Of a stretch of DNA of 12,103 nt, positions 3,715 to 11,864 are shown piece by piece (the stretch's first letter is position 1; every line of letters starts with the position of its first letter). A model generated the notes under the pieces. That model searched no databases. It was not told where the DNA came from and saw only the letters and a program-made list of their open reading frames with translations. Origin of the DNA: Acidobacteriaceae bacterium (GTDB taxonomy: Bacteria > Acidobacteriota > Terriglobia > Terriglobales > Acidobacteriaceae); NCBI GenBank assembly GCA_009781125.1, contig WQYS01000038.1, positions 1 through 12,103 of the forward strand. The letters run 5' to 3'. The translations under genes and the position numbers were made by a program.

Positions 3715-3789
3715 TGGTTCCAGCCTAAAGCATTTTCAGCGGCGCTGTGTGGTTCCGGAATCTGCTTTCCTTCGTCCTGCCACGAACGT

Positions 3790-3969
3790 CCGGGTGCCCC
3801 ATCCTTGTCGCCGCGGCGACCGAAGGGTGGGAATGTATACGGCCTAACTTACGATTGTCTGGCAACGGAAAACATGGTTGATCGAGCGTCTTCGATTCCC
3901 GCCCTTCGTCCGCCCAGACGTCATGGACTCCCCTGGGCGGCTTCGCCGGACGAAGGATGGGGCACCCGA
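3790..3969. repeat. Composite inverted-repeat element, copy B
   Basis: The ends CGGGTGCCCCATCCTT (3791-3806) and AAGGATGGGGCACCCG (3953-3968) form a perfect 16-bp inverted repeat. Inner blocks GAAGGGTGGGAA (3822-3833), GTATACGGC (3835-3843), GAGCGTCTT (3884-3892) and ATTCCCGCCCTT (about 3895-3906) parallel copy A with nearly identical spacing. An extra arm pair, CCGCCCAG (about 3910-3917) and CTGGGCGG (3933-3940), makes it about 25 bases longer. It fills most of the gap between two divergently transcribed genes (3715-4079); outside it only a weak promoter-like TTGACT (4023-4028) is seen. Confidence 0.85.
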
Positions 3970-4079
3970 ACGATTTTGCCGCTCCGAAACGACAAGTAAA
4001 ATCTGGTGAAACTATTTTTCTGTTGACTCCAGACCCTCGAAGATCGAGCATAAAGACTCATCACTGTTGAGAGTGGTTC

Positions 4080-7000
4080 GTGTTCCTCATGCGTAGAGCT
4101 TCTTTTGTCCGATATGATCCTCTTTGGTTTTGCCGTCTGTTTTGGGCATGTCTTTCCTGCTTCGGATTTCTTGCGGCTCCTCTTGCGGCAAGGGCGCAGA
4201 CTACAGGGCTGAACGCTGCATGGCAACCCGTCGGACCGGCGCGGGTGGCGAGTCTCCGCTACGGAAGCGTCACCGGCAGAGTGACCGCTGTTGCGGTCGA
4301 TCCCGCCGATCCATCCGGCAACACGGTCTATATAGGTACCACGGGCGGCGGCGTCTGGAAGTCTACTAATGCGGCGTGGCCTGCCGCGAGCGTCATCTTT
4401 CATCCGCTGACCGACACGCTTCCTGTCTTCAACGCCAATGCCGGAAGCACGGCGGCTCCTTCGCTCGCGATCGGCGCGCTGAGCGTGGCTAATGGAGTAG
4501 GTGGCGGCGTGATCCTCGCCGGAACCGGCGACCCGAACCATGCGGCAGACTCGTTCTATGGCAGCGGCCTGCTGCGCTCGACCGACGGCGGCCTCAACTG
4601 GACGCTGATCTCGTACGCCAACGCTGAACCTACCTATGTCTACAGCTTCGCCGGACTCGCGTTTGCGGGATTCGCCTGGAGCACAACCTCTCCCGCGACG
4701 GTGGTTGCGGCGGTCGCCGACTCGGCGCGCGGCTCGCTGGTCAACGCCACCGGCGGCACCGGCAGCGTGATGGGGATTTATTACTCGCTCGACAGCGGAC
4801 AATCGTGGCGCATGGCCACGCTGATGGATGGAACCCAGAAGGTGCAGGGCTCGGGCATGAACTCCGGCAGCAACGCCGTGACCTCGGTGGTGTGGAATCC
4901 GGTGCGGCAGAGGTTTTATGCGGCGGTGCGCTATCACGGCTACTACGAGTCGTCGGACGGCATCACCTGGAGCAGGATGGCTCAGCAACAGCAGCCCGGC
5001 CCCGGACTCACAACTGCGGTCTGCCCGGCGCAGGCAGGGATGAGCGGAAGCACCGGTTGTCCGATCTTTCGCGGAGCGTTGGCGGTTCAGCCAGTGACCG
5101 GCGACGTGTTCGCTCTGAGCGTGGATGCGGCCAACGTGGATCAGGGACTCTGGGAGGACGTGTGTGCTTCTAACGGTTCGGCATGTACAGGCGCGGACGC
5201 ATTCACGACGCAGCTATCCGCCACGCCGATGGAAACTGGCGGCGTGATTCCGCGGGGCGACTACAACCTTGCGCTGGCAGCGGTGTCTACAGGCTCGGAC
5301 ACGCTGCTGCTTGCGGGAACTCAGGACCTGTACCGGTGTTCGTTGAGTTCCGGCTGCTCGCTGCTCAACGCGACCAACGCGCTCGGCACAGCTCCGGCGG
5401 GAGTGGCTCCGGCGCAACATGCGATTGCCGCGCTGACCATATCGGGCCAGCCGACGGTGTTCCTCGGCAACGATGGCGGCCTCTGGCGTTCGACCGACGG
5501 CGCGAACAACTTCGACAACCTGAACGGCGGCCTCGGCTCGCTGGCTGAGGTGGTGAGTCTGGCCCAGAACCCCACGGATGCGGACACGCTGCTTGCAGGT
5601 CTGGGCGCGATGGGAACGGCTGCGACCAGCGCGGCGTCAGCAGGCACGCCGTGGCCGCAGTTGTCTGCCGGAGAGGGCGGAGTGGTTGCGATCGATCTCG
5701 CGCAGCCTTCGCTGTGGTACGTCTCGACAGCGCCGGGCGTGAGCATCACGCGATGCGCGAAGGGAAGCGCATGTACAGCGGCGGATTTCGCCGCGACGCC
5801 AACCATCGGAGCCTCGCAGGTGGCGCAGGACGCTTCGGCTGCGGATGCGCCGTGGATGCTTGATTCGGCGTACTCCGCGAACGCAATCGTAGGCACGTGC
5901 CGTGCATGGCGTGGTCCGGCAGACGGAACCGGGTGGTCCGCCGACAACGCGATCAGCGCCATGATGGATGAAAGCTCGACGTGCGTTACAGGTAACTCTG
6001 TGATTCGGTCTCTGGCCGCCGGAGGAGCGGCGTCCTCGACCGCGACTGCCGCGCAGAATATGGGTTCCGAGGTGCTTTACGCCGGAATGGCGGGCGCGCT
6101 CGATGGCGGCGGCGTACTGGGCGGACACATCTTCACAACCGCGAACGCAGCAACGTCTCCGGGCTTGCCGGTCTGGACCGATATTGCAATCAATACAGTT
6201 ACAAATGAAGTGATGTATCACGGAGTCTTCAATCCCGGCGGCTTCGATGTGCCGTCCATCGCCGTGGACCCCCATGACCCGTCAGGAATGACGATCTATG
6301 CAGCAATCATGGGGTTTTACAGCAACGGAGCCAGCGTGCCCAAGCTCTACCGCTCGGTGAACGGCGGAACAAGCTGGACCGCAGTTTCAAGCAATATGCC
6401 TTTTGTGCCCGCAAACAGCGTCGTGATCGACCCGAATGATGCTAACACGGTCTATGTCGCGACCGACGCTGGCGTATATGTAACTAACAACATTACCAAT
6501 TGTGCTGACATTACTTCGAGTTGCTGGAACCTCTACGGCGTCGGGCTGCCGAACGCTCCGGTCATGCAATTGGCCATCGCTGCCGCGATGCCTGCGGGAA
6601 GCGGACAGACCGGCATGCTGCGTGCAGCAACCTATGGGCGCGGAATATGGCAGATTCCCTTGATGACATCCGCGGTAACGCAGACCGCTATCGAGACCAG
6701 CACGGCTTCGCTGAGCTTCACCAATCAGCAGCAGGTAGGCACGGCCAGCGGTGTTGAAACTGTAACGGTTACAAATTCAGGAAACGCTCCGCTCATGGTG
6801 AGCAGCGTCGTAATTACAGGCGATTTCACCGAGACGAACCAGTGCGAGAATGCCGTGATCGCAGCGGGAGCAAGCTGTACCGTGCAGGTTCGTTTTCTGC
6901 CCGCGGCGACAGGCAGCCGGACTGGTGTGCTGACGATCTACGGAAATGTCAGCGGAGGCCAGGCGACGGTGGCGCTCACCGGAACGGCGATTCCGGGCGG

Positions 7001-8414
7001 CAACGTGGTGCTGAGTCCCGTGATGGCGAGCTTTCCGGCGACCACGGTCAATGCCGCCAGCGCGCCCGTGGATGTAACTATCTCCAACACCGGCACGGGC
7101 ACGGCCACGCTGCAGAAGCCTACGGTGACAGGCGATTTCGCCATCACGGCCAACACCTGCGGAGCTACTTTGGCGGCGCAGACAGGATGCACGGTGGCAA
7201 TCGTCTTCAGCCCCACGGCTTCAGGCAGCCGCGAGGGGACGCTGACCGTCGTGAGCGATGCAGGCACCGGGACCACAGCCCTGAGCGGAACTGGAACTCT
7301 GCCCGCAACCGGCAGCTTGAGTACGTTGGCGCTCGCATTCGCTCCGCAGCAGATGGGAACGGCAAGCCAGGTTCAGATTGTGACGCTGACCAATACGGGA
7401 GACGTCGCGCTGACGCTGATCGCCGCAGTTACGAGCGGCGACTTCAGCGTTGTCAGCTACTGCGGCAGCTCGCTGGCCGCGCATGCAAGCTGCTCGCTGC
7501 TGGTGTCGTTCCGTCCGCAGAATGTCGGGCCGGAGAGCGGCGCGCTGATTGTCAGCGACGAATACGGGACGCAGACGGTCGCGCTGACGGGCACGGGCGC
7601 GGCTCCGCCGGGCGTCTCGCTTGCGCCCAGCCAGGGGCTGACGTTTGCTGCGACCGGCGTGGGCATGGCCTCAGCCACGCAGGTCGTGACGCTGACCAAT
7701 AACGGCGGGCTTCCACTCACTATTAATAGCCTGAGCACCAGCGGCGACTTCGCGATCACGGCGAACGGCTGCGGTGCGACACTGGCCCTGGCATCGGCGT
7801 GTATCGTGCAGGTAGAGTTCACTCCGGCGGCGGCGGGCACGCGAACCGGCAGCCTCACGGTGATCGATGACGCTCCTGGATCGCCGCACACGCTGGCGTT
7901 GAGCGGTGCGGGCGTGGACTTCGCGCTCGTAGCCGACGGCGCGACCACGGTAACGGTTTCAAGCGGTGAGAGCGCGGTGTTTCCACTGCTGTTCAGCTCT
8001 GACACCGCGGTGAGCGGAACGGCTACGCTCACCTGCACGGGCGCTCCAGCGAACTCGGTCTGCACGGTGACTCCATCGAGTGTGACTCTGGGATATGCGA
8101 CGACGATCACAGCTACAGTGCAGACAGGAGTCTCGACGGCCTCACTGAAGACCAGCCGCAGCGCGTGGCTTGTCTTCGTTGTTCCGGTCGTCTGCCTGGC
8201 GCTCCGGCGCCGATGCCGGATTCCTTGGTATGCGGCTTTGCTTGTGCTCGTATGTCTGACGGGCTGCTCCGTGCAGCGGCTGATTCCGGGCGATGGAGGC
8301 TCCAGCGGGACAGGGCTCGGCGTGACGACGAGTCCAGGAAGCTACGGAATCGTGGTGACGGCAACCAGCGCGGGATTGTCGCGCTCGGTGAATCTAACCA
8401 TGGTCGTGCAGTAG
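4080..8414 (+). CDS. Large secreted Asp-box beta-propeller protein with Ig-like repeats and C-terminal hydrophobic hairpin
   Basis: A 1444-residue exported protein of unknown function. An N-terminal signal peptide ends near ARA-Q (after residue 39). Residues about 42-862 form one or two propellers of the sortilin/BNR type. Asp-box-like motifs occur near 93 (WKSTN), 165 (LRSTDGGLNW), 234 (YSLDSGQSW), 288 (YESSDGITW), 469 (WRSTDG) and 757 (YRSVNGGTSW). Four Ig-like repeats of the choice-of-anchor-D/HYDIN kind follow at about 875-972, 975-1078, 1080-1177 and 1178-1279, each with a C-x9-C or C-x10-C pair. A further Ig-like region covers 1280-1355. Then come a hydrophobic segment (1363-1375), RRRCR (1376-1380), a second hydrophobic segment (1383-1395) with LTGC (Cys1396), and a last Ig-strand-like tail (1418-1444). 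The start is GTG; GAGAG six bases upstream suits it better than the ATG at 4089, and an in-frame stop lies upstream at 4068. It is monocistronic as far as can be seen. Ligand-binding or adhesion is a guess. Confidence 0.8.
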   Translation: MFLMRRASFVRYDPLWFCRLFWACLSCFGFLAAPLAARAQTTGLNAAWQPVGPARVASLRYGSVTGRVTAVAVDPADPSGNTVYIGTTGGGVWKSTNAAWPAASVIFHPLTDTLPVFNANAGSTAAPSLAIGALSVANGVGGGVILAGTGDPNHAADSFYGSGLLRSTDGGLNWTLISYANAEPTYVYSFAGLAFAGFAWSTTSPATVVAAVADSARGSLVNATGGTGSVMGIYYSLDSGQSWRMATLMDGTQKVQGSGMNSGSNAVTSVVWNPVRQRFYAAVRYHGYYESSDGITWSRMAQQQQPGPGLTTAVCPAQAGMSGSTGCPIFRGALAVQPVTGDVFALSVDAANVDQGLWEDVCASNGSACTGADAFTTQLSATPMETGGVIPRGDYNLALAAVSTGSDTLLLAGTQDLYRCSLSSGCSLLNATNALGTAPAGVAPAQHAIAALTISGQPTVFLGNDGGLWRSTDGANNFDNLNGGLGSLAEVVSLAQNPTDADTLLAGLGAMGTAATSAASAGTPWPQLSAGEGGVVAIDLAQPSLWYVSTAPGVSITRCAKGSACTAADFAATPTIGASQVAQDASAADAPWMLDSAYSANAIVGTCRAWRGPADGTGWSADNAISAMMDESSTCVTGNSVIRSLAAGGAASSTATAAQNMGSEVLYAGMAGALDGGGVLGGHIFTTANAATSPGLPVWTDIAINTVTNEVMYHGVFNPGGFDVPSIAVDPHDPSGMTIYAAIMGFYSNGASVPKLYRSVNGGTSWTAVSSNMPFVPANSVVIDPNDANTVYVATDAGVYVTNNITNCADITSSCWNLYGVGLPNAPVMQLAIAAAMPAGSGQTGMLRAATYGRGIWQIPLMTSAVTQTAIETSTASLSFTNQQQVGTASGVETVTVTNSGNAPLMVSSVVITGDFTETNQCENAVIAAGASCTVQVRFLPAATGSRTGVLTIYGNVSGGQATVALTGTAIPGGNVVLSPVMASFPATTVNAASAPVDVTISNTGTGTATLQKPTVTGDFAITANTCGATLAAQTGCTVAIVFSPTASGSREGTLTVVSDAGTGTTALSGTGTLPATGSLSTLALAFAPQQMGTASQVQIVTLTNTGDVALTLIAAVTSGDFSVVSYCGSSLAAHASCSLLVSFRPQNVGPESGALIVSDEYGTQTVALTGTGAAPPGVSLAPSQGLTFAATGVGMASATQVVTLTNNGGLPLTINSLSTSGDFAITANGCGATLALASACIVQVEFTPAAAGTRTGSLTVIDDAPGSPHTLALSGAGVDFALVADGATTVTVSSGESAVFPLLFSSDTAVSGTATLTCTGAPANSVCTVTPSSVTLGYATTITATVQTGVSTASLKTSRSAWLVFVVPVVCLALRRRCRIPWYAALLVLVCLTGCSVQRLIPGDGGSSGTGLGVTTSPGSYGIVVTATSAGLSRSVNLTMVVQ

Positions 8415-8563
8415 GATTCTTTGCGAGACAGCAGCAATTTACCTGCCAACCGAACTATTCATAAGAAAGCCAATGTAACATCTGCGAAGAGGTCAGTTAC
8501 CAGGAACTTTTTACCTTAATCCATCGGCGGCCCAGGTCAGGAGCAGGAAACTTGTATCAAATA

Positions 8564-8619
8564 GTTCTACTTGTCCGTAAAAATGGATATGCGCAAGAAG
8601 CTGCAAGGATAAGTAGAAC
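8564..8619. repeat. Long inverted repeat with 30-base loop
   Basis: GTTCTACTTGTCC (8564-8576) pairs with GGATAAGTAGAAC (8607-8619) over 13 positions with a single G·T pair (8573/8610). It lies in the AT-rich gap, 150 bases past the large gene. It could be a small structured RNA, a factor-assisted terminator or a remnant of a mobile element; nothing decides between them. Confidence 0.5.
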
Positions 8620-8797
8620 ACCGGTACATTAATTCTTTAGTAATAAGAGTGCAGTCTCAGTCGGGAAAGAAAATACTAATTTATATTTTTACTGATAATG
8701 TAGTAATTCCACGAGTGTCCGGCAGCGCTGCACACACGGGAGCTTCGAGAGTGGTCCATGCGGGCGTGCTGCTTTTTGTCCGGAGCGGCAAAAACGC

Positions 8798-8814
8798 CCG
8801 GGTGCCCCATCCTT
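8798..8814 (+). repeat. Half copy (single end) of the dispersed repeat, copy C
   Basis: CCGGGTGCCCCATCCTT is the same terminal sequence as in copies A and B, but no matching opposite end is found nearby. The preceding CGGAGCGGCAAAA (8781-8793) also precedes the right end of copy B when B is read on the opposite strand (about 3976-3988), so the shared sequence extends outside the inverted end. Confidence 0.75.
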
Positions 8815-8935
8815 CCTCCGCTTCGCTGCGGAATGACAAGGGGAAGTGTAAGAATTGCGGCGACTGCGGAAGCCGTGTTTATGGAACTGTAAAAACTAAG
8901 TAGATGGAGTAAGTTGGCGCGATTCACCGCATAAG

Positions 8936-8951
8936 TGGCACACCAAGTGCG
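8936..8951 (+). promoter_or_regulatory. Sigma-54 type (-24/-12) promoter of PEP-CTERM gene 1
   Basis: TGGCACACCAAGTGCG closely matches the sigma-54 consensus TGGCAC-N5-TTGC: the -24 half is exact, the -12 half is GTGC, and GG and GC are separated by exactly 10 bases (GG 8937-8938, GC 8949-8950). Transcription would start near 8962, giving a leader of about 80 bases. Equivalent elements precede the next two paralogues. Confidence 0.75.
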
Positions 8952-9002
8952 TAGTAGATGCCGGGCGGGAAGGAGGTTCTCTCTGGTGCTCTTTCCTCTC
9001 GA

Positions 9003-9014
9003 CGAATCGATTCG
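9003..9014 (+). promoter_or_regulatory. Palindrome in the leader of PEP-CTERM gene 1
   Basis: CGAATCGATTCG is a perfect 12-bp palindrome centred about 32 bases before the start codon, just before the ribosome-binding site AAGGAAGG (9019-9026). It could be a repressor site or a short RNA hairpin. Genes 2 and 3 have unrelated palindromes in the same place. Confidence 0.5.
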
Positions 9015-9040
9015 AATTAAGGAAGGAAGTTTTCTTCGAT

Positions 9041-9778
9041 ATGAAACGCGCTTTAATCCTTGCTTCTCTGGCTGCAACCCTGGTTGCAGCTTCAACCGCT
9101 GCCTATGGAGATAGTATTGTATTTACGCTTGCGGCAAGCACCTGTAGCGGAAACTGCGCTGTACCTGCGGGCACAGTCACGCTCACGGATACTTCAGCCG
9201 GAGTCCTGGTAGATGTGCAGTTAGTCTCCGGCACCTACTTCAGCCAGGGTACTGGCGCCGGACCCACCTTTGCATTTTCCGCCGATCCCAGCTTTTCGCC
9301 TGGAGTTACAGGCGTTACGGCGGATAACTCCAGCCTGATCTTTTCGGTGCTGGCCGGTGCTCCTGATATCAACGGCAAGCATGGCAACTTCAACACCGCC
9401 ATCCAGTGCACCAACTGTAGTAACGGCGGGCCAGACTATGCCTCTAACCTGACCTTTGCTGTAACTGGAACCGATGCGGACGGAGCGGTCATTACCGTCT
9501 CGGATTTTCTCTCTTCTACGCTCAATGGTGATTCCACCAACTACTATTTTGCGGTCGATGTGAACCAGAGCGGCACCACGGGCCTGATCTATGCCGAGGG
9601 ACCAGGCGTGCTGATTGCGAGCGCTCCGGCTGTTCCCTATGTTCCTCCCGGTCTCGGTGCGCCGAAAGCCCCAGCTCCACCTCCCGCACCGGTTCCAGAG
9701 CCTTCGACGCTGCTCTTTCTAGGAACCGGCCTGACGGCCCTGGGCGGAATTCTTCGCCGCAGGCTCGCGCGCGAATAA
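9041..9778 (+). CDS. PEP-CTERM sorting-domain protein 1
   Basis: A 245-residue exported protein with signals at both ends. The N-terminal signal peptide (MKR plus a hydrophobic core) probably ends near AYG-D at residue 23. The C-terminus has the classic PEP-CTERM signal: VPEPST (218-223), a hydrophobic helix (LLFLGTGLTALGG) and an Arg cluster (RRRLARE). In known systems a membrane exosortase cuts at PEP and the protein goes to the cell surface or matrix. The body is small and beta-rich, with Cys35/Cys39 (CSGNC) and Cys123/Cys126 (QCTNC), positions shared with the two paralogues downstream. A Pro/Ala linker (about 197-217) precedes the signal. The ATG is supported by AAGGAAGGAAG at 9019-9029. 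It has its own sigma-54 type promoter and an intrinsic terminator, so it is monocistronic. The molecular function is unknown. Confidence 0.88.
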   Translation: MKRALILASLAATLVAASTAAYGDSIVFTLAASTCSGNCAVPAGTVTLTDTSAGVLVDVQLVSGTYFSQGTGAGPTFAFSADPSFSPGVTGVTADNSSLIFSVLAGAPDINGKHGNFNTAIQCTNCSNGGPDYASNLTFAVTGTDADGAVITVSDFLSSTLNGDSTNYYFAVDVNQSGTTGLIYAEGPGVLIASAPAVPYVPPGLGAPKAPAPPPAPVPEPSTLLFLGTGLTALGGILRRRLARE

Positions 9779-9820
9779 CTACAAAACTACAGAACAAGCC
9801 ATCCAGTCTGACGCCACCAT

Positions 9821-9860
9821 TCCCTGAAGAGACTCGCGTAGCCTCTTCAGGGATTTTTTT
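9821..9860 (+). terminator. Intrinsic terminator after PEP-CTERM gene 1
   Basis: TCCCTGAAGAG (9821-9831) pairs perfectly with CTCTTCAGGGA (9843-9853), followed at once by seven T (9854-9860). A textbook rho-independent terminator 42 bases after the stop codon. Confidence 0.93.
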
Positions 9861-9965
9861 CTTGTAAATATGCACAAAACCGCATAGTTTCCACGGCTTC
9901 AATTCCACCACACAATAGTAAAAAAGCAGATCTTCACAAATCCGCACGCGGCGCGGGCGGCTGAG

Positions 9966-9981
9966 TGGTTCATGAATTGCC
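9966..9981 (+). promoter_or_regulatory. Sigma-54 type (-24/-12) promoter of PEP-CTERM gene 2
   Basis: TGGTTCATGAATTGCC has TGG, a 10-base gap and GC within TTGC (GG 9967-9968, GC 9979-9980), the invariant geometry of sigma-54 promoters. It is nearly the same as the element of gene 3 (TGGTTACCGAATTGCC). The leader would be about 110 bases. It lies in the 322-base gap 9779-10100, which otherwise holds the gene-1 terminator, a bulged hairpin at 10021-10043 and the palindrome at 10056. Confidence 0.7.
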
Positions 9982-10055
9982 GTAGAGATGGCAAAGAGAG
10001 CTGGATGGTTGAGTCTATCTATATCCCCGTCATAAGGGAATATCCAGGATGCTCT

Positions 10056-10073
10056 TTGAGTTGATCAACTCAA
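10056..10073 (+). promoter_or_regulatory. 18-bp perfect palindrome in the leader of PEP-CTERM gene 2
   Basis: TTGAGTTGATCAACTCAA is a perfect palindrome centred 36 bases before the GTG start. As RNA it would form a 7-bp stem with a GAUC loop, 14 bases ahead of the ribosome-binding site. It could equally be a dimeric operator. Confidence 0.6.
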
Positions 10074-10087
10074 TATATTTGTGGATG

Positions 10088-10093
10088 AAAGGG
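10088..10093 (+). promoter_or_regulatory. Ribosome-binding site fixing the GTG start of gene 2
   Basis: AAAGGG lies seven bases before GTG at 10101. The same GTGG-ATGAAAGGG context precedes the GTG of gene 3 (GAAAGGG at 11086-11092), supporting GTG in both. Confidence 0.65.
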
Positions 10094-10100
10094 TTTCTCA

Positions 10101-10820
10101 GTGATTAAACGTTTAATTCTTCTTGGTTCCCTGGCTGTGGCTTTAGTTACAGCCTCAACTTCAGCCTATGCGGACAGCATCTCCTGGGGGCTGTCCAAGA
10201 GTAACTGCATCGATAGCAGTTGCGCCTCTTACGGGACAGTTACGGTCACGGACACGGCAGCCGGAGTCGATGTATCGGTGGTGTTGACGAGCGGTTACTT
10301 CAACTACAACAGCAATGGTCCGACGCTGTCGTTCAGCCTTGACCCGAGCCTCGTCCCTGCGGATGCGGCGATCACGAACATCGTTCTTACTAACAGCGAT
10401 GGCTCGGTTACTTATACGGACGCCACGGCGTCGCTGCCGCCGTTGGGCACCGATGCCGCCGGACTTACCAGCAACCAGGGCGACAACAACGTGGTGATCC
10501 AGTGCGCCGACTGCGGGCCGCAAGGCCCGATGGGCGATACGCTGACGACGATGACCTTCTCCATCAACGGCGTAAGCACCGGCGATTTTGTCCCCACATC
10601 GGGCGGCAACATCAAGAATGCGCCGTGGTACTTTGAGGCCAATACAGACTCGAGCGGCGGCGGCTCGGTGCTGGTCTGGGCCAATGGCGCGGGCACACTT
10701 ACTCCGTTCACGCCCGGCGGCGGGACTCCTCCGGCGGTTCCGGAGCCTTCGACGCTGCTCTTTCTGGGAACCGGACTGACGGCTCTGGGCGGAGCCATTC
10801 GCCGCAGGCTGAGCCGGTAA
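10101..10820 (+). CDS. PEP-CTERM sorting-domain protein 2
   Basis: A 239-residue exported protein, close paralogue of the gene at 11101 and more distant homologue of the one at 9041. The signal peptide (MIKR plus a hydrophobic core) probably ends at AYA-D (residue 24). The mature part begins DSISWGLS. Conserved pairs are Cys36/Cys41 (C-x4-C) and Cys135/Cys138 (QCADC). Blocks shared with gene 3 include SFSLDPSL (77-84), NQGDNNVVIQC (125-135), INGVSTGDFVPTSG (155-168) and APWYFEAN (174-181). A Gly/Pro/Thr linker leads to the PEP-CTERM signal: VPEPST (213-218), a hydrophobic helix, RRRLSR. It starts with GTG and has its own sigma-54 type promoter, leader palindrome and terminator. A surface or matrix protein released by an exosortase is inferred from the signal; the body matches no function I can name. 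Confidence 0.88.
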   Translation: MIKRLILLGSLAVALVTASTSAYADSISWGLSKSNCIDSSCASYGTVTVTDTAAGVDVSVVLTSGYFNYNSNGPTLSFSLDPSLVPADAAITNIVLTNSDGSVTYTDATASLPPLGTDAAGLTSNQGDNNVVIQCADCGPQGPMGDTLTTMTFSINGVSTGDFVPTSGGNIKNAPWYFEANTDSSGGGSVLVWANGAGTLTPFTPGGGTPPAVPEPSTLLFLGTGLTALGGAIRRRLSR

Positions 10821-10851
10821 TCAGACCGTCTCTTCCCCCAACTCCTGTTAC

Positions 10852-10889
10852 GCGGAACGGACTCCTTCATGGAGTCCGTTCCGCTTTTT
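10852..10889 (+). terminator. Intrinsic terminator after PEP-CTERM gene 2
   Basis: A perfect 14-bp stem pairs 10852-10865 (ending GGAACGGACTCC) with 10871-10884 (GGAGTCCGTTCCGC), loop TTCAT, followed by five T (10885-10889). The core GGACTCC/GGAGTCC is repeated in the hairpin after gene 3. Confidence 0.92.
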
Positions 10890-10929
10890 GCCCGGCGTTC
10901 GTGGCAGGGCGAAGGACACCTGTATTTCA

Positions 10930-10986
10930 GTCCCCTACGCCACAGCGAAAAGCTGGTTTTTCCAGCGCCTGCAACTTGCAGGGGAC
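10930..10986 (+). promoter_or_regulatory. Nested inverted repeats just upstream of the gene 3 promoter
   Basis: CCTGCAACTTGCAGG (10968-10982) is a palindrome of two perfect 7-base arms around one base, centred 20 bases before the -24 GG. GCTGG (10952-10956) pairs with CCAGC (10962-10966). GTCCCCT (10930-10936) pairs with AGGGGAC (10980-10986) around both. This may be an activator-binding site; no equivalent is seen upstream of genes 1 and 2. Confidence 0.35.
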
Positions 10987-10993
10987 AACCGTA

Positions 10994-11009
10994 TGGTTAC
11001 CGAATTGCC
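10994..11009 (+). promoter_or_regulatory. Sigma-54 type (-24/-12) promoter of PEP-CTERM gene 3
   Basis: TGGTTACCGAATTGCC: TGG, exactly 10 bases, then GC within TTGC (GG 10995-10996, GC 11007-11008). The first transcribed bases (GGTGCCAAAGAG at 11018-11029) resemble those of gene 2 (GATGGCAAAGAG at 9987-9998). The leader would be about 80 bases. Confidence 0.7.
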
Positions 11010-11100: not shown

Positions 11101-11799
11101 GTGACAAAACGAGTAATTCTTCTTGCATCTCTGGCTGCGGTGTTTGCCGTAGCCTCAACCTGTGCTCGCGCAGACAGCATCTCATGGAGCTTGTCTGACA
11201 ACTGTAGCGGCAGCAGTTGCGCCTCTGCCGGGATGGTCACGGCCACGGACACTCCGACCGGAGTCAACGTGTCGGTGGTGCTGACGGACGGATACTTTGG
11301 CTCCAACGGCTCGGCTCCTGCCTTCTCGTTCAGCCTCGACCCGAGCCTCATCCCCACCGACGCCGCGATCACGAACATCGTCTTCAGCAGCAGCGACGGC
11401 ACGGTGACCTATACCGCCGCTACGGCCTCGCAGCCGCCGCTGGGAACCGGCAACTCCGGCATCGGCGGCAACCAGGGTGACAATAACGTGGTGATCCAAT
11501 GCCCCGCCTGCGCCAAGAACCCCATGAAGGATACGCTGACGACGCTGACCTTCATCATCAACGGCGTAAGCACCGGCGACTTCGTCCCCACTTCGGGCAA
11601 CAACATAAAAGATGCGCCCTGGTACTTTGAAGCCAACACGGGCAACGCCATAATCTGGGCCTGGGGTACGGGCACTTGCACGCCGTCGATCCCTTCGGGC
11701 GGTAATCCTCCTGCTGTTCCGGAGCCTTCGACGCTGCTCTTCCTGGGAACCGGACTGACGGCTCTGGGCGGACTTATCCGCCGCAAGCTGATCCGGTAA
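11101..11799 (+). CDS. PEP-CTERM sorting-domain protein 3
   Basis: A 232-residue exported protein, close paralogue of the gene at 10101. The signal peptide (MTKR plus a hydrophobic core) probably ends at ARA-D (residue 24); Cys21 lies inside it. The mature part begins DSISWSLS, with Cys35/Cys40 (C-x4-C) and Cys134/Cys137 (QCPAC) as in the paralogues, plus an extra Cys193 absent from them. Shared blocks include SFSLDPSL, NQGDNNVVIQC, INGVSTGDFVPTSG and APWYFEAN. The C-terminal signal is VPEPST (206-211), a hydrophobic helix and RRKLIR. The frame is open upstream to 10888, but I place the start at GTG 11101: it gives a proper signal peptide, has GAAAGGG eight bases upstream, aligns with gene 2, and lies downstream of the sigma-54 type promoter. 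An exosortase substrate is inferred; no enzymatic motif is visible. Confidence 0.88.
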   Translation: MTKRVILLASLAAVFAVASTCARADSISWSLSDNCSGSSCASAGMVTATDTPTGVNVSVVLTDGYFGSNGSAPAFSFSLDPSLIPTDAAITNIVFSSSDGTVTYTAATASQPPLGTGNSGIGGNQGDNNVVIQCPACAKNPMKDTLTTLTFIINGVSTGDFVPTSGNNIKDAPWYFEANTGNAIIWAWGTGTCTPSIPSGGNPPAVPEPSTLLFLGTGLTALGGLIRRKLIR

Positions 11800-11833: not shown

Positions 11834-11864
11834 CAGAACGGACTCCCCCGCGGAGTCCGTTCTG
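11834..11864 (+). terminator. Hairpin terminator after PEP-CTERM gene 3
   Basis: CAGAACGGACTCC (11834-11846) pairs perfectly with GGAGTCCGTTCTG (11852-11864) around a 5-base loop. There is no T-run, so termination may be weaker than after gene 2. The stem core is nearly the same as gene 2's, suggesting it was duplicated with the gene. Confidence 0.65.

What the first reader, a model, noticed from the sequence alone, without database searches (positions are those of the whole stretch)
8936..11009. Three neighbouring PEP-CTERM genes each carry their own sigma-54 (-24/-12) promoter
TGGCACACCAAGTGCG (8936), TGGTTCATGAATTGCC (9966) and TGGTTACCGAATTGCC (10994) all show TGG-N10-GC. Each lies 90-121 bases before a PEP-CTERM gene, and all but the first are preceded by a terminator. 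In proteobacterial exosortase systems the PrsK/PrsR pair, with a sigma-54-dependent regulator, accompanies PEP-CTERM loci. Finding the signature in what looks like an acidobacterium suggests a small regulon of sorted surface proteins that is switched on together but transcribed gene by gene.
Basis: partly seen in the sequence, partly recalled or inferred. Interest (0 to 1): 0.75.

Follow-up and report, generated by a model that had tools for sequence, protein, structure and literature searches.

The report
Sigma-54 regulon of acidobacterial surface proteins
In this soil-type bacterium and its relatives, genes for surface-sorted proteins appear to be switched on one by one through a special type of promoter that needs a remote activator, using a DNA control element different from the one described for proteobacteria.

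Summary
The bare pattern is at chance (42 found, 40.7 expected), but a -24/-12 matrix learned only from relatives picks exactly these sites as best before each PEP-CTERM gene (13.5, 7.8, 8.7; 0/3000 joint shuffles). The window's genome is not held, so relatives were tested. In Acidobacteriaceae, PEP-CTERM genes carry sigma-54 sites (49/117 vs 8/222 control genes), a dyad atgTGCAAanntTTGCAcat mostly 66-134 bp upstream of them (78/117 vs 3/222; held-out 27/49) and an IHF-like box between, in helical phase: the textbook enhancer-IHF-sigma-54 layout, gene by gene. PrsR exceeds its cut-off in 0/60 genomes and the TTTACA core of the proteobacterial box is in 0/61 upstreams; the dyad resembles E. coli AtoC sites. 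A cassette of two activators and a kinase tracks exosortase and PEP-CTERM and carries the dyad itself. In the window g1 and g2 are good members, g3 plausible; their dyad is distant (g1), weak (g2) or missing (g3). Binding and RpoN dependence are untested.

The parts
8936..8951 (+). sigma-54 (-24/-12) promoter of PEP-CTERM gene 1
   Evidence: learned matrix 13.5, rank 2 in window, 1/222 control upstreams reach it
9041..9778 (+). PEP-CTERM gene 1 (245 aa) with C-terminal VPEPSTLLFLGTGLTALGG sorting signal
   Evidence: PF07589 22.5 bits over cut-off; TIGR02595
9821..9861 (+). intrinsic terminator after gene 1
   Evidence: hairpin 9821-9853 -19.3 kcal/mol, z -4.76, then T-run
9868..9887 (.). weak enhancer-dyad candidate of gene 2, ATATGCACAAAACCGCATAG, 98 bp upstream of the -24 element
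   Evidence: dyad score 4.8 at typical spacing; a score this high in the 60-140 bp window occurs in 9% of control positions
9966..9981 (+). sigma-54 (-24/-12) promoter of PEP-CTERM gene 2
   Evidence: learned matrix 7.8; 13/222 controls reach it; block conserved with gene 3
10101..10820 (+). PEP-CTERM gene 2 (239 aa)
   Evidence: PF07589 24 bits; 69% identical to gene 3
10852..10888 (+). intrinsic terminator after gene 2
   Evidence: 14-pair stem plus T-run; -30.5 kcal/mol, z -8.9
10994..11009 (+). probable sigma-54 promoter of PEP-CTERM gene 3 (weak -24 element, TGGTTA)
   Evidence: learned matrix 8.7; 10/222 controls reach it; recalled consensus matrix only 6.0
11101..11799 (+). PEP-CTERM gene 3 (232 aa), tandem paralogue of gene 2
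   Evidence: PF07589 23.5 bits
8589..8608 (.). distant enhancer-dyad candidate, ATGCGCAAGAAGCTGCAAGG, best in the whole window, 347 bp upstream of the gene 1 promoter
   Evidence: dyad score 12.3; 1/222 control 300-bp regions reach 12.3
11834..11864 (+). hairpin after gene 3, similar in sequence to the gene 2 terminator but without a T-run
   Evidence: -25.1 kcal/mol, z -4.15

Best explanation
The three PEP-CTERM genes belong to a family-wide Acidobacteriaceae regulon of exosortase-sorted surface proteins. Each gene is its own transcription unit with a sigma-54 promoter. An NtrC/AtoC-type enhancer-binding protein, most likely the receiver-less activator (EBP-A) and/or the response regulator (EBP-B) of a conserved divergent cassette (EBP-A | histidine kinase-EBP-B), binds a TGCA-N6-TGCA dyad mostly 66-134 bp upstream of -24. 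An IHF-like protein bends the DNA between them, and ATP hydrolysis by the activator opens the sigma-54 complex. One signal thus turns on many scattered single genes, and in some species also the exosortase gene and the cassette itself. Shown by sequence statistics: the three-element layout, its phasing and its association with PEP-CTERM genes in relatives, and sigma-54-type sites at the three window genes. Inferred: which protein binds, the signal, IHF identity, and that the window's species works likewise. Gene 1 and gene 2 are the firmer members; gene 3 is a tandem copy whose own enhancer is not recognisable and which may share an upstream one.
For: Sigma-54 sites >=10 in 49/117 PEP-CTERM upstreams vs 8/222 other genes and 3.6/117 in shuffles; sites >=9 peak 25-125 bp before the start. 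Dyad found de novo, >=10 in 78/117 vs 3/222 and vs 4.3/117 shuffled; held-out genes of close relatives 27/49 vs 1.7 shuffled. IHF-like box gTAAgTnncTgAtantaa in the spacer (EM log-likelihood 141.9, 120 starts, vs at most 71.6 in four shuffled runs of 40 starts; <=1 mismatch to YAANNNNYTGATW in 23/80 vs 5.0). Distances phased at 10.5 bp: n=64 R 0.39; after removing >=40% identical proteins n=46, R 0.41, median p 0.001, IHF box to -24 R 0.64, n=31. Homologues of g2 in other genomes have such sites too. Window sites. EBP-A (E<=1e-100) in 28/29 PEP-CTERM-positive vs 14/31 negative genomes, 33/35 exosortase-positive vs 9/25 negative; dyad-type palindrome >=10 near the EBP-A start in 19/20 loci (one of them 10.0). 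Strict enhancer-promoter pattern 110 vs 21 reversed-pattern hits, mean 2.29 per EBP-A-positive and 0.78 per EBP-A-negative genome. E. coli AtoC sites (PMC3118216, passages) score 20.1 and 16.0 on the dyad matrix.
Against: Window genome not held: no rpoN, activator or exosortase seen for this species. In the window the dyad is weak (g2), 347 bp away (g1) or absent (g3) and no clear IHF-like box lies near -24. g2/g3 have TGGTT instead of TGGCA. 38 of 166 surveyed PEP-CTERM genes have neither element at threshold. EBP-A also occurs in 14 PEP-CTERM-negative genomes, and by eye only 13 of the 110 strict pattern hits lie before a PEP-CTERM gene (11) or EBP-A (2). Phasing vanished in one test with one gene per 35%-linked family (n=16, R 0.08, p 0.9).
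Confidence: 0.77

Rival explanations
1. The three window sites are chance matches and the genes are transcribed from unrecognised sigma-70-type or ECF promoters.
For: The bare pattern is at chance in the window; g2 and g3 are individually reached by 13 and 10 of 222 control upstreams; no convincing enhancer for g3.
Against: Joint score 0/3000 shuffles; the sites are the best in 400 bp for all three genes and score well above anything before the other four window genes; TGGTTNNNGAATTGCC stands as a conserved block in the diverged g2/g3 upstream regions; family-wide enrichment; no sigma-70-type promoter-like site upstream of the genes on + in a simple scan.
Confidence: 0.12
2. This is the proteobacterial PrsK/PrsR PEP-CTERM regulon, acquired by an acidobacterium.
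For: Same logic (enhancer, sigma-54, single-gene units); exosortase locus with PrsT (TIGR02917 412.8 bits, cut-off 312.2, one locus scanned; its sequence cluster c2 is in 12 of 20 exosortase loci).
Against: PrsR over cut-off 0/60 (best 442 bits, 502.6 needed); TTTACA core 0/61; box centred on TGCA; the kinase of the candidate cassette (one scanned) is a 310-aa HisKA/HATPase protein with no PrsK match at E<=1e-30.
Confidence: 0.05
3. Only g1 and g2 are functional regulon members; g3 (and partly g2) are decaying tandem copies whose enhancer is lost, read weakly or through the enhancer of a neighbour.
For: g3 has no dyad (best -2.1) and g2 only 4.8; -24 elements are TGGTT; g2 and g3 are 69% identical tandem copies.
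Against: The -12 TTGC and the spacing are kept in both copies; both coding sequences and PEP-CTERM signals are intact; enhancers can act at a distance (established knowledge).
Confidence: 0.3

Closest known systems
Proteobacterial PEP-CTERM regulon with PrsK/PrsR (Haft 2006, PMC1569441: section 7 and passages read; DAP-chip of DVUA0057, PMC3333781: passages read; RpoN-dependent pepA, PMC9850573: passages read)
   Same: Single-gene PEP-CTERM units with long upstream regions, an activator box and a sigma-54 site; exosortase/EPS/PrsT context.
   Different: Haft reported the motifs only in Proteobacteria among the species discussed. Here the box is TGCA-N6-TGCA, without the TTTACA core (0/61); no PrsR over cut-off; an IHF-like box between; candidate regulators are a receiver-less EBP plus a kinase and a response regulator.
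E. coli AtoSC-atoDAEB control (PMC3118216, passages read)
   Same: 20-bp dyad GCTATGCAGAAATTTGCACA, sigma-54 dependence; the candidate activators have AtoC among their best NCBIfam matches.
   Different: Targets are surface proteins and EPS genes, not short-chain fatty acid catabolism; candidates score far below the AtoC equivalog cut-off (375.4 and 318 vs 714 bits).
Classical UAS-IHF-sigma-54 promoters (recalled textbook layout)
   Same: Order, spacing and helical phase of enhancer, IHF-type box and -24/-12.
   Different: Here repeated over dozens of single genes for sorted surface proteins in a phylum for which the searches made listed no such description.

Membership tests
Sigma-54-dependent promoter | GG at -24 and GC at -12, ten bases between TGG and GC | tested here: met
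Sigma-54-dependent promoter | rpoN in the genome | tested here: inconclusive
   window genome not held; 17 of 17 relatives have PF04552
Sigma-54-dependent promoter | activator enhancer at canonical distance | tested here: inconclusive
   relatives: met; window: weak for g2, distant for g1, none for g3
Sigma-54-dependent promoter | loss of transcription without RpoN | not testable with these tools
   needs a mutant
PrsK/PrsR PEP-CTERM regulon | PrsR (TIGR02915) over cut-off | tested here: not met
   0 of 60 relatives, at most 23 candidates scored per genome; not testable in the window's own genome
PrsK/PrsR PEP-CTERM regulon | PrsK (TIGR02916) | tested here: inconclusive
   0 of 60 but no control rang
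PrsK/PrsR PEP-CTERM regulon | motif 1 ending in TTTACA upstream of the sigma-54 site | tested here: not met
   0 of 61, 1.8 expected; only the TTTACA core was tested, on the coding-sense strand 25-115 bp upstream of -24; the full logo was not available
PrsK/PrsR PEP-CTERM regulon | PrsT (TIGR02917) beside the exosortase | tested here: met
   one locus scanned, 412.8 bits, in a relative, not in the window
PEP-CTERM proteins | C-terminal PEP-CTERM signal over the curated cut-off | tested here: met
   3 of 3
AtoC regulators | AtoC equivalog score (PRK11361, 714 bits) | tested here: not met
   EBP-B 375.4, EBP-A 318 of locus L401
AtoC regulators | AtoC-type 20-bp binding dyad | tested here: met
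   E. coli sites score 20.1 and 16.0 on the acidobacterial matrix; similarity of sites, not binding

The most novel reading that the evidence does not exclude
Acidobacteriaceae have their own matrix regulon: a cassette of two enhancer-binding proteins (a receiver-less activator divergent from a histidine kinase and an AtoC-like response regulator) that stands in for PrsK/PrsR, autoregulates through the same dyad, and drives scattered single PEP-CTERM genes, exosortase and exopolysaccharide genes through phased enhancer-IHF-sigma-54 promoters. A third, GAFTGA-less paralogue beside the exosortase may damp it.
Probability: 0.5. Interest if true: 0.7.

Novelty: new variant of a known kind. Interest (0 to 1): 0.6.

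Why it matters
PEP-CTERM proteins are abundant, mostly uncharacterised surface proteins of soil and sediment bacteria, and their sigma-54 control had been described for Proteobacteria only among the species of Haft 2006. A regulon motif in Acidobacteria, common soil bacteria, names the promoters, the likely activators and further targets (exosortase, exopolysaccharide genes), and makes matrix control in this phylum directly testable in cultured relatives.

Tried and rejected
Rfam riboswitch or RNA element in the window: nothing at E<=1. Bare TGG-N10-GC counts: uninformative. Direct scan of genome contigs for close homologues of g2/g3: none confirmed. PrsK/PrsR as the regulator. The recalled sigma-54 matrix gave g3 only 6.0, the learned one 8.7; both are reported. 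Nothing I saw in 8415-8935 completes a canonical module around the 8589 dyad (the best IHF-like score there is 7.5 at 8676); an intergenic repeat (GGGTGCCCCATCC type, 8799 on, seen by eye) lies between dyad and promoter, and an insertion that stretched the spacing is only a guess. Phasing with one gene per 35%-linked family was negative (n=16); with 40, 50 and 60% identity cuts it was positive.

Rows dropped before counts: 122 ORFs were recognised; 2 were dropped by hand because they are not PEP-CTERM (from L108 and L111); 119 entered, and the 117 with at least 300 bp of upstream sequence entered the counts. I fetched 100 regions plus the 30 loci printed, not every listed match; the set also holds a few genes, among them L083 and L088 (G007) and L084 (G003). 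Held-out: 60 regions fetched, 49 genes recognised, sequences already used excluded; two of those genomes (G003, G007) had thus given three training genes. Start codons were picked by a simple rule and some will be wrong. Control genes have higher G+C upstream (57.6 vs 51.1%), hence the added shuffles. The EBP-A palindrome count used about 790-bp regions, longer than the 300-bp controls, and one of the 20 loci (L415) holds a related activator, not one search hit.
Full report
1. What is in the window. The 12,103-base window carries the end of an ORF that looks by eye like an AAA+ protease subunit (not scanned), transaldolase, an FAA hydrolase, an fn3 protein, a 1444-aa choice-of-anchor-D protein, and three PEP-CTERM genes g1 (9041-9778), g2 (10101-10820), g3 (11101-11799). 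g2 and g3 are 69% identical tandem copies, g1 is 40% identical to g2. The transaldolase is closest to Acidobacteriaceae (Edaphobacter/Granulicella-type records, 79-82% for the best six loci). No whole genome is held for the window, so genome-wide tests were made in relatives.

2. The observation. All three TGG-N10-GC sites are as stated. The bare pattern has no value: 42 in the window, 40.7 expected. Scored sites do. A matrix learned from 80 acidobacterial sites anchored on an independent upstream element, with no window sequence in it, gives 13.5, 7.8 and 8.7; each is the best site within 400 bp of its gene, while the other four window genes reach at most 4.1. Empirical p against 222 control upstreams: 0.009, 0.063, 0.049, combined 0.0018; joint shuffles 0 of 3000. 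The terminators after g1 and g2 are well formed.

3. Relatives. TIGR02595 was found in 29 of 60 genomes of the family of G001 (G001 is the genome in which locus L001, record JAFDVV010000012.1, lies). From these and a few earlier hits, 119 PEP-CTERM genes with upstream sequence were obtained. The best sigma-54 score in 300 bp was >=10 in 49 of 117, against 8 of 222 other genes from acidobacterial loci and a mean of 3.6 of 117 in dinucleotide shuffles; on the antisense strand 8 of 117. Sites of >=9 peak 25-125 bp upstream of the start. With one gene per protein family, 20 of 49 vs 8 of 222.

4. The enhancer. K-mers upstream of the 61 genes with a sigma-54 site >=8 were enriched in ATGTGCA and TGTGCAA. 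Expectation-maximisation gave the palindrome atgTGCAAanntTTGCAcat. At score >=10 it is in 78 of 117 PEP-CTERM upstreams, 3 of 222 controls and 4.3 of 117 shuffles. Held-out test on 49 genes of G002-G005, G007 and G014, relatives with 76-82% identical transaldolase: 27 of 49, shuffles 1.7; sigma-54 >=8 in 27 of 49 vs 27 of 222 controls. The dyad lies mostly 66-134 bp upstream of -24, with some outliers. Homologues of g2 itself (7 of 398 genomes at E<=1e-10) carry sigma-54-type sites and, mostly, dyads; but in L253, L090 and L254 these lie 240-380 bp before the start, in L252 the dyad is only 30 bp from -24, and in L251 it is weak (6.8).

5. The middle element. Spacers of 80 modules share gTAAgTnncTgAtantaa (log-likelihood 141.9 with 120 starts vs 62.5-71.6 in four shuffled runs of 40 starts), which matches the recalled IHF consensus in reverse, YAANNNNYTGATW: <=1 mismatch in 23 of 80, shuffled mean 5.0, maximum 12; no mismatch in 9 of 80 vs 0.2. 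In the held-out part alone the <=1 mismatch count is 7 of 24 vs 1.6, maximum 8. Its distances to -24 fall at 28-31, 39-43, 49-54, 60-62, 72 and 76, and from the dyad start at 31, 38-39, 48-51, 58-63, 66-72 and 81-83. Phasing at 10.5 bp: dyad to -24 R 0.39 (n=64); after removing proteins >=40% identical R 0.41, n=46, median p 0.001; box to -24 R 0.64, n=31. A one-per-family sample of 16 showed no phasing (R 0.08, p 0.9). This is the recalled textbook layout enhancer, IHF, sigma-54.

6. The activator. PrsR over cut-off: 0 of 60 (at most 23 candidates per genome scored); all 60 genomes have NtrC-like matches to that model at E<=1e-50. The TTTACA core of the proteobacterial motif 1 (PMC1569441, section 7) is in 0 of 61. 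The dyad matches the E. coli AtoC sites GCTATGCAGAAATTTGCACA and GCTATGCAGAAAATTGCGCA (PMC3118216, passages), which score 20.1 and 16.0. A receiver-less activator, EBP-A (Sigma54_activat and HTH_8 in the two scanned), occurs at E<=1e-100 in 28 of 29 PEP-CTERM-positive and 14 of 31 negative genomes (p 1e-5), and in 33 of 35 exosortase-positive and 9 of 25 negative (p 1.4e-6). Of 20 loci read, 18 have it divergent from a histidine kinase gene and/or a second activator gene; in L409 and L414 no neighbour was tagged. The second activator, EBP-B, has a receiver domain in the two scanned. A PEP-CTERM gene sits beside EBP-A in 4 of 20 (L402, L403, L404, L408). A dyad-type palindrome, often of the form TGTGAAA-N4-TTTTCACA, scores >=10 near the start of that gene in 19 of 20 loci (L406 at 10.0, L407 only 8.9; L415 holds a related activator rather than one search hit), which suggests autoregulation. 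A strict pattern of dyad plus promoter gives 110 hits in 60 genomes against 21 for the reversed pattern, 2.29 per EBP-A-positive and 0.78 per EBP-A-negative genome, 2.14 per PEP-CTERM-positive and 1.55 per negative genome. By eye 11 of the 110 lie before PEP-CTERM genes and 2 before EBP-A; among the 30 loci kept, others precede an XrtA-associated ATPase-like gene (199 bits, cut-off 324.5), wecB (411.9 bits, over cut-off), an Rrf2-type regulator and an NRPS-like gene. Dyad plus sigma-54 site lie at or near the start of the exosortase gene in 3 of 20 exosortase loci (L262, L264, L265). So the regulon seems wider than PEP-CTERM genes. Which of EBP-A and EBP-B binds is not shown.

7. Back to the window. 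g1 has the strongest -24/-12; the best dyad of the whole window (12.3, 8589) is upstream but 347 bp away. g2 has a modest -24/-12 with a weak dyad (4.8) 98 bp upstream, a typical distance; such a score occurs in 9% of control positions. g3 has a modest -24/-12 and no dyad. TGGTTNNNGAATTGCC is a conserved block between the g2 and g3 upstream regions. I hold g1 and g2 as members (about 0.85 and 0.75) and g3 as probable (about 0.6); these are judgements.

8. Known or new. Haft and colleagues stated that, among the species they discuss, only Proteobacteria share the DNA motifs. Experimental support there: RpoN-dependent pepA in Aquincola (PMC9850573, passages) and DAP-chip enrichment of five predicted PEP-CTERM targets by DVUA0057 of Desulfovibrio (PMC3333781, passages). 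Francke 2011 ties sigma-54 to the bacterial exterior (PMC3162934, passages); the words Solibacter, Koribacter and Acidobacteri do not occur in its main text. Searches for PEP-CTERM or exosortase with sigma-54, rpoN, Acidobacteria, promoter, regulation and enhancer-binding protein listed no paper whose title or abstract start deals with an acidobacterial PEP-CTERM regulon; the library is open-access only. I rate it a new variant of a known kind.

Noticed in passing
L267:10886-11794 and L257:10656-11549; relatives: A ~300-aa enhancer-binding-protein paralogue; the two sequences printed lack the GAFTGA loop and have an altered Walker A but keep a Fis-type HTH. It sits divergent to, or near, the exosortase in 8 of 20 exosortase loci and is found at >=46% identity in 14 of 60 genomes, all exosortase-positive. 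Could be an anti-activator or a regulator of another promoter type.
   Followed up: partly
window 8448-8433 (- strand): The highest sigma-54 consensus score in the window (TGGCAGGTAAATTGCT, 15.3) points leftwards into the end of the 1444-aa gene, with no annotated gene close downstream on that strand.
   Followed up: no
window ~1622-1783, ~3787-3972, ~8799-8850: By eye: an intergenic repeat of the type CGGGTGCCCCATCC...GGATGGGGCACCCG, in inverted pairs twice and as a half copy between the 8589 dyad and the g1 promoter.
   Followed up: no
L262, L264, L265 (exosortase loci of G047, G051, G001): A dyad plus sigma-54 site lies at or near the start of the exosortase gene itself.
   Followed up: partly
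window 4080-8414: 1444-aa protein with a weak BNR repeat match and four choice-of-anchor-D stretches; best sigma-54 score in its 400-bp upstream only 4.1.
   Followed up: no
L009: Record titled Rhodanobacteraceae carries a transaldolase 76% identical to the acidobacterial query; the bin label may be wrong.
   Followed up: no
G043: Genome with 15 PEP-CTERM hits but no exosortase hit, perhaps incomplete.
   Followed up: no
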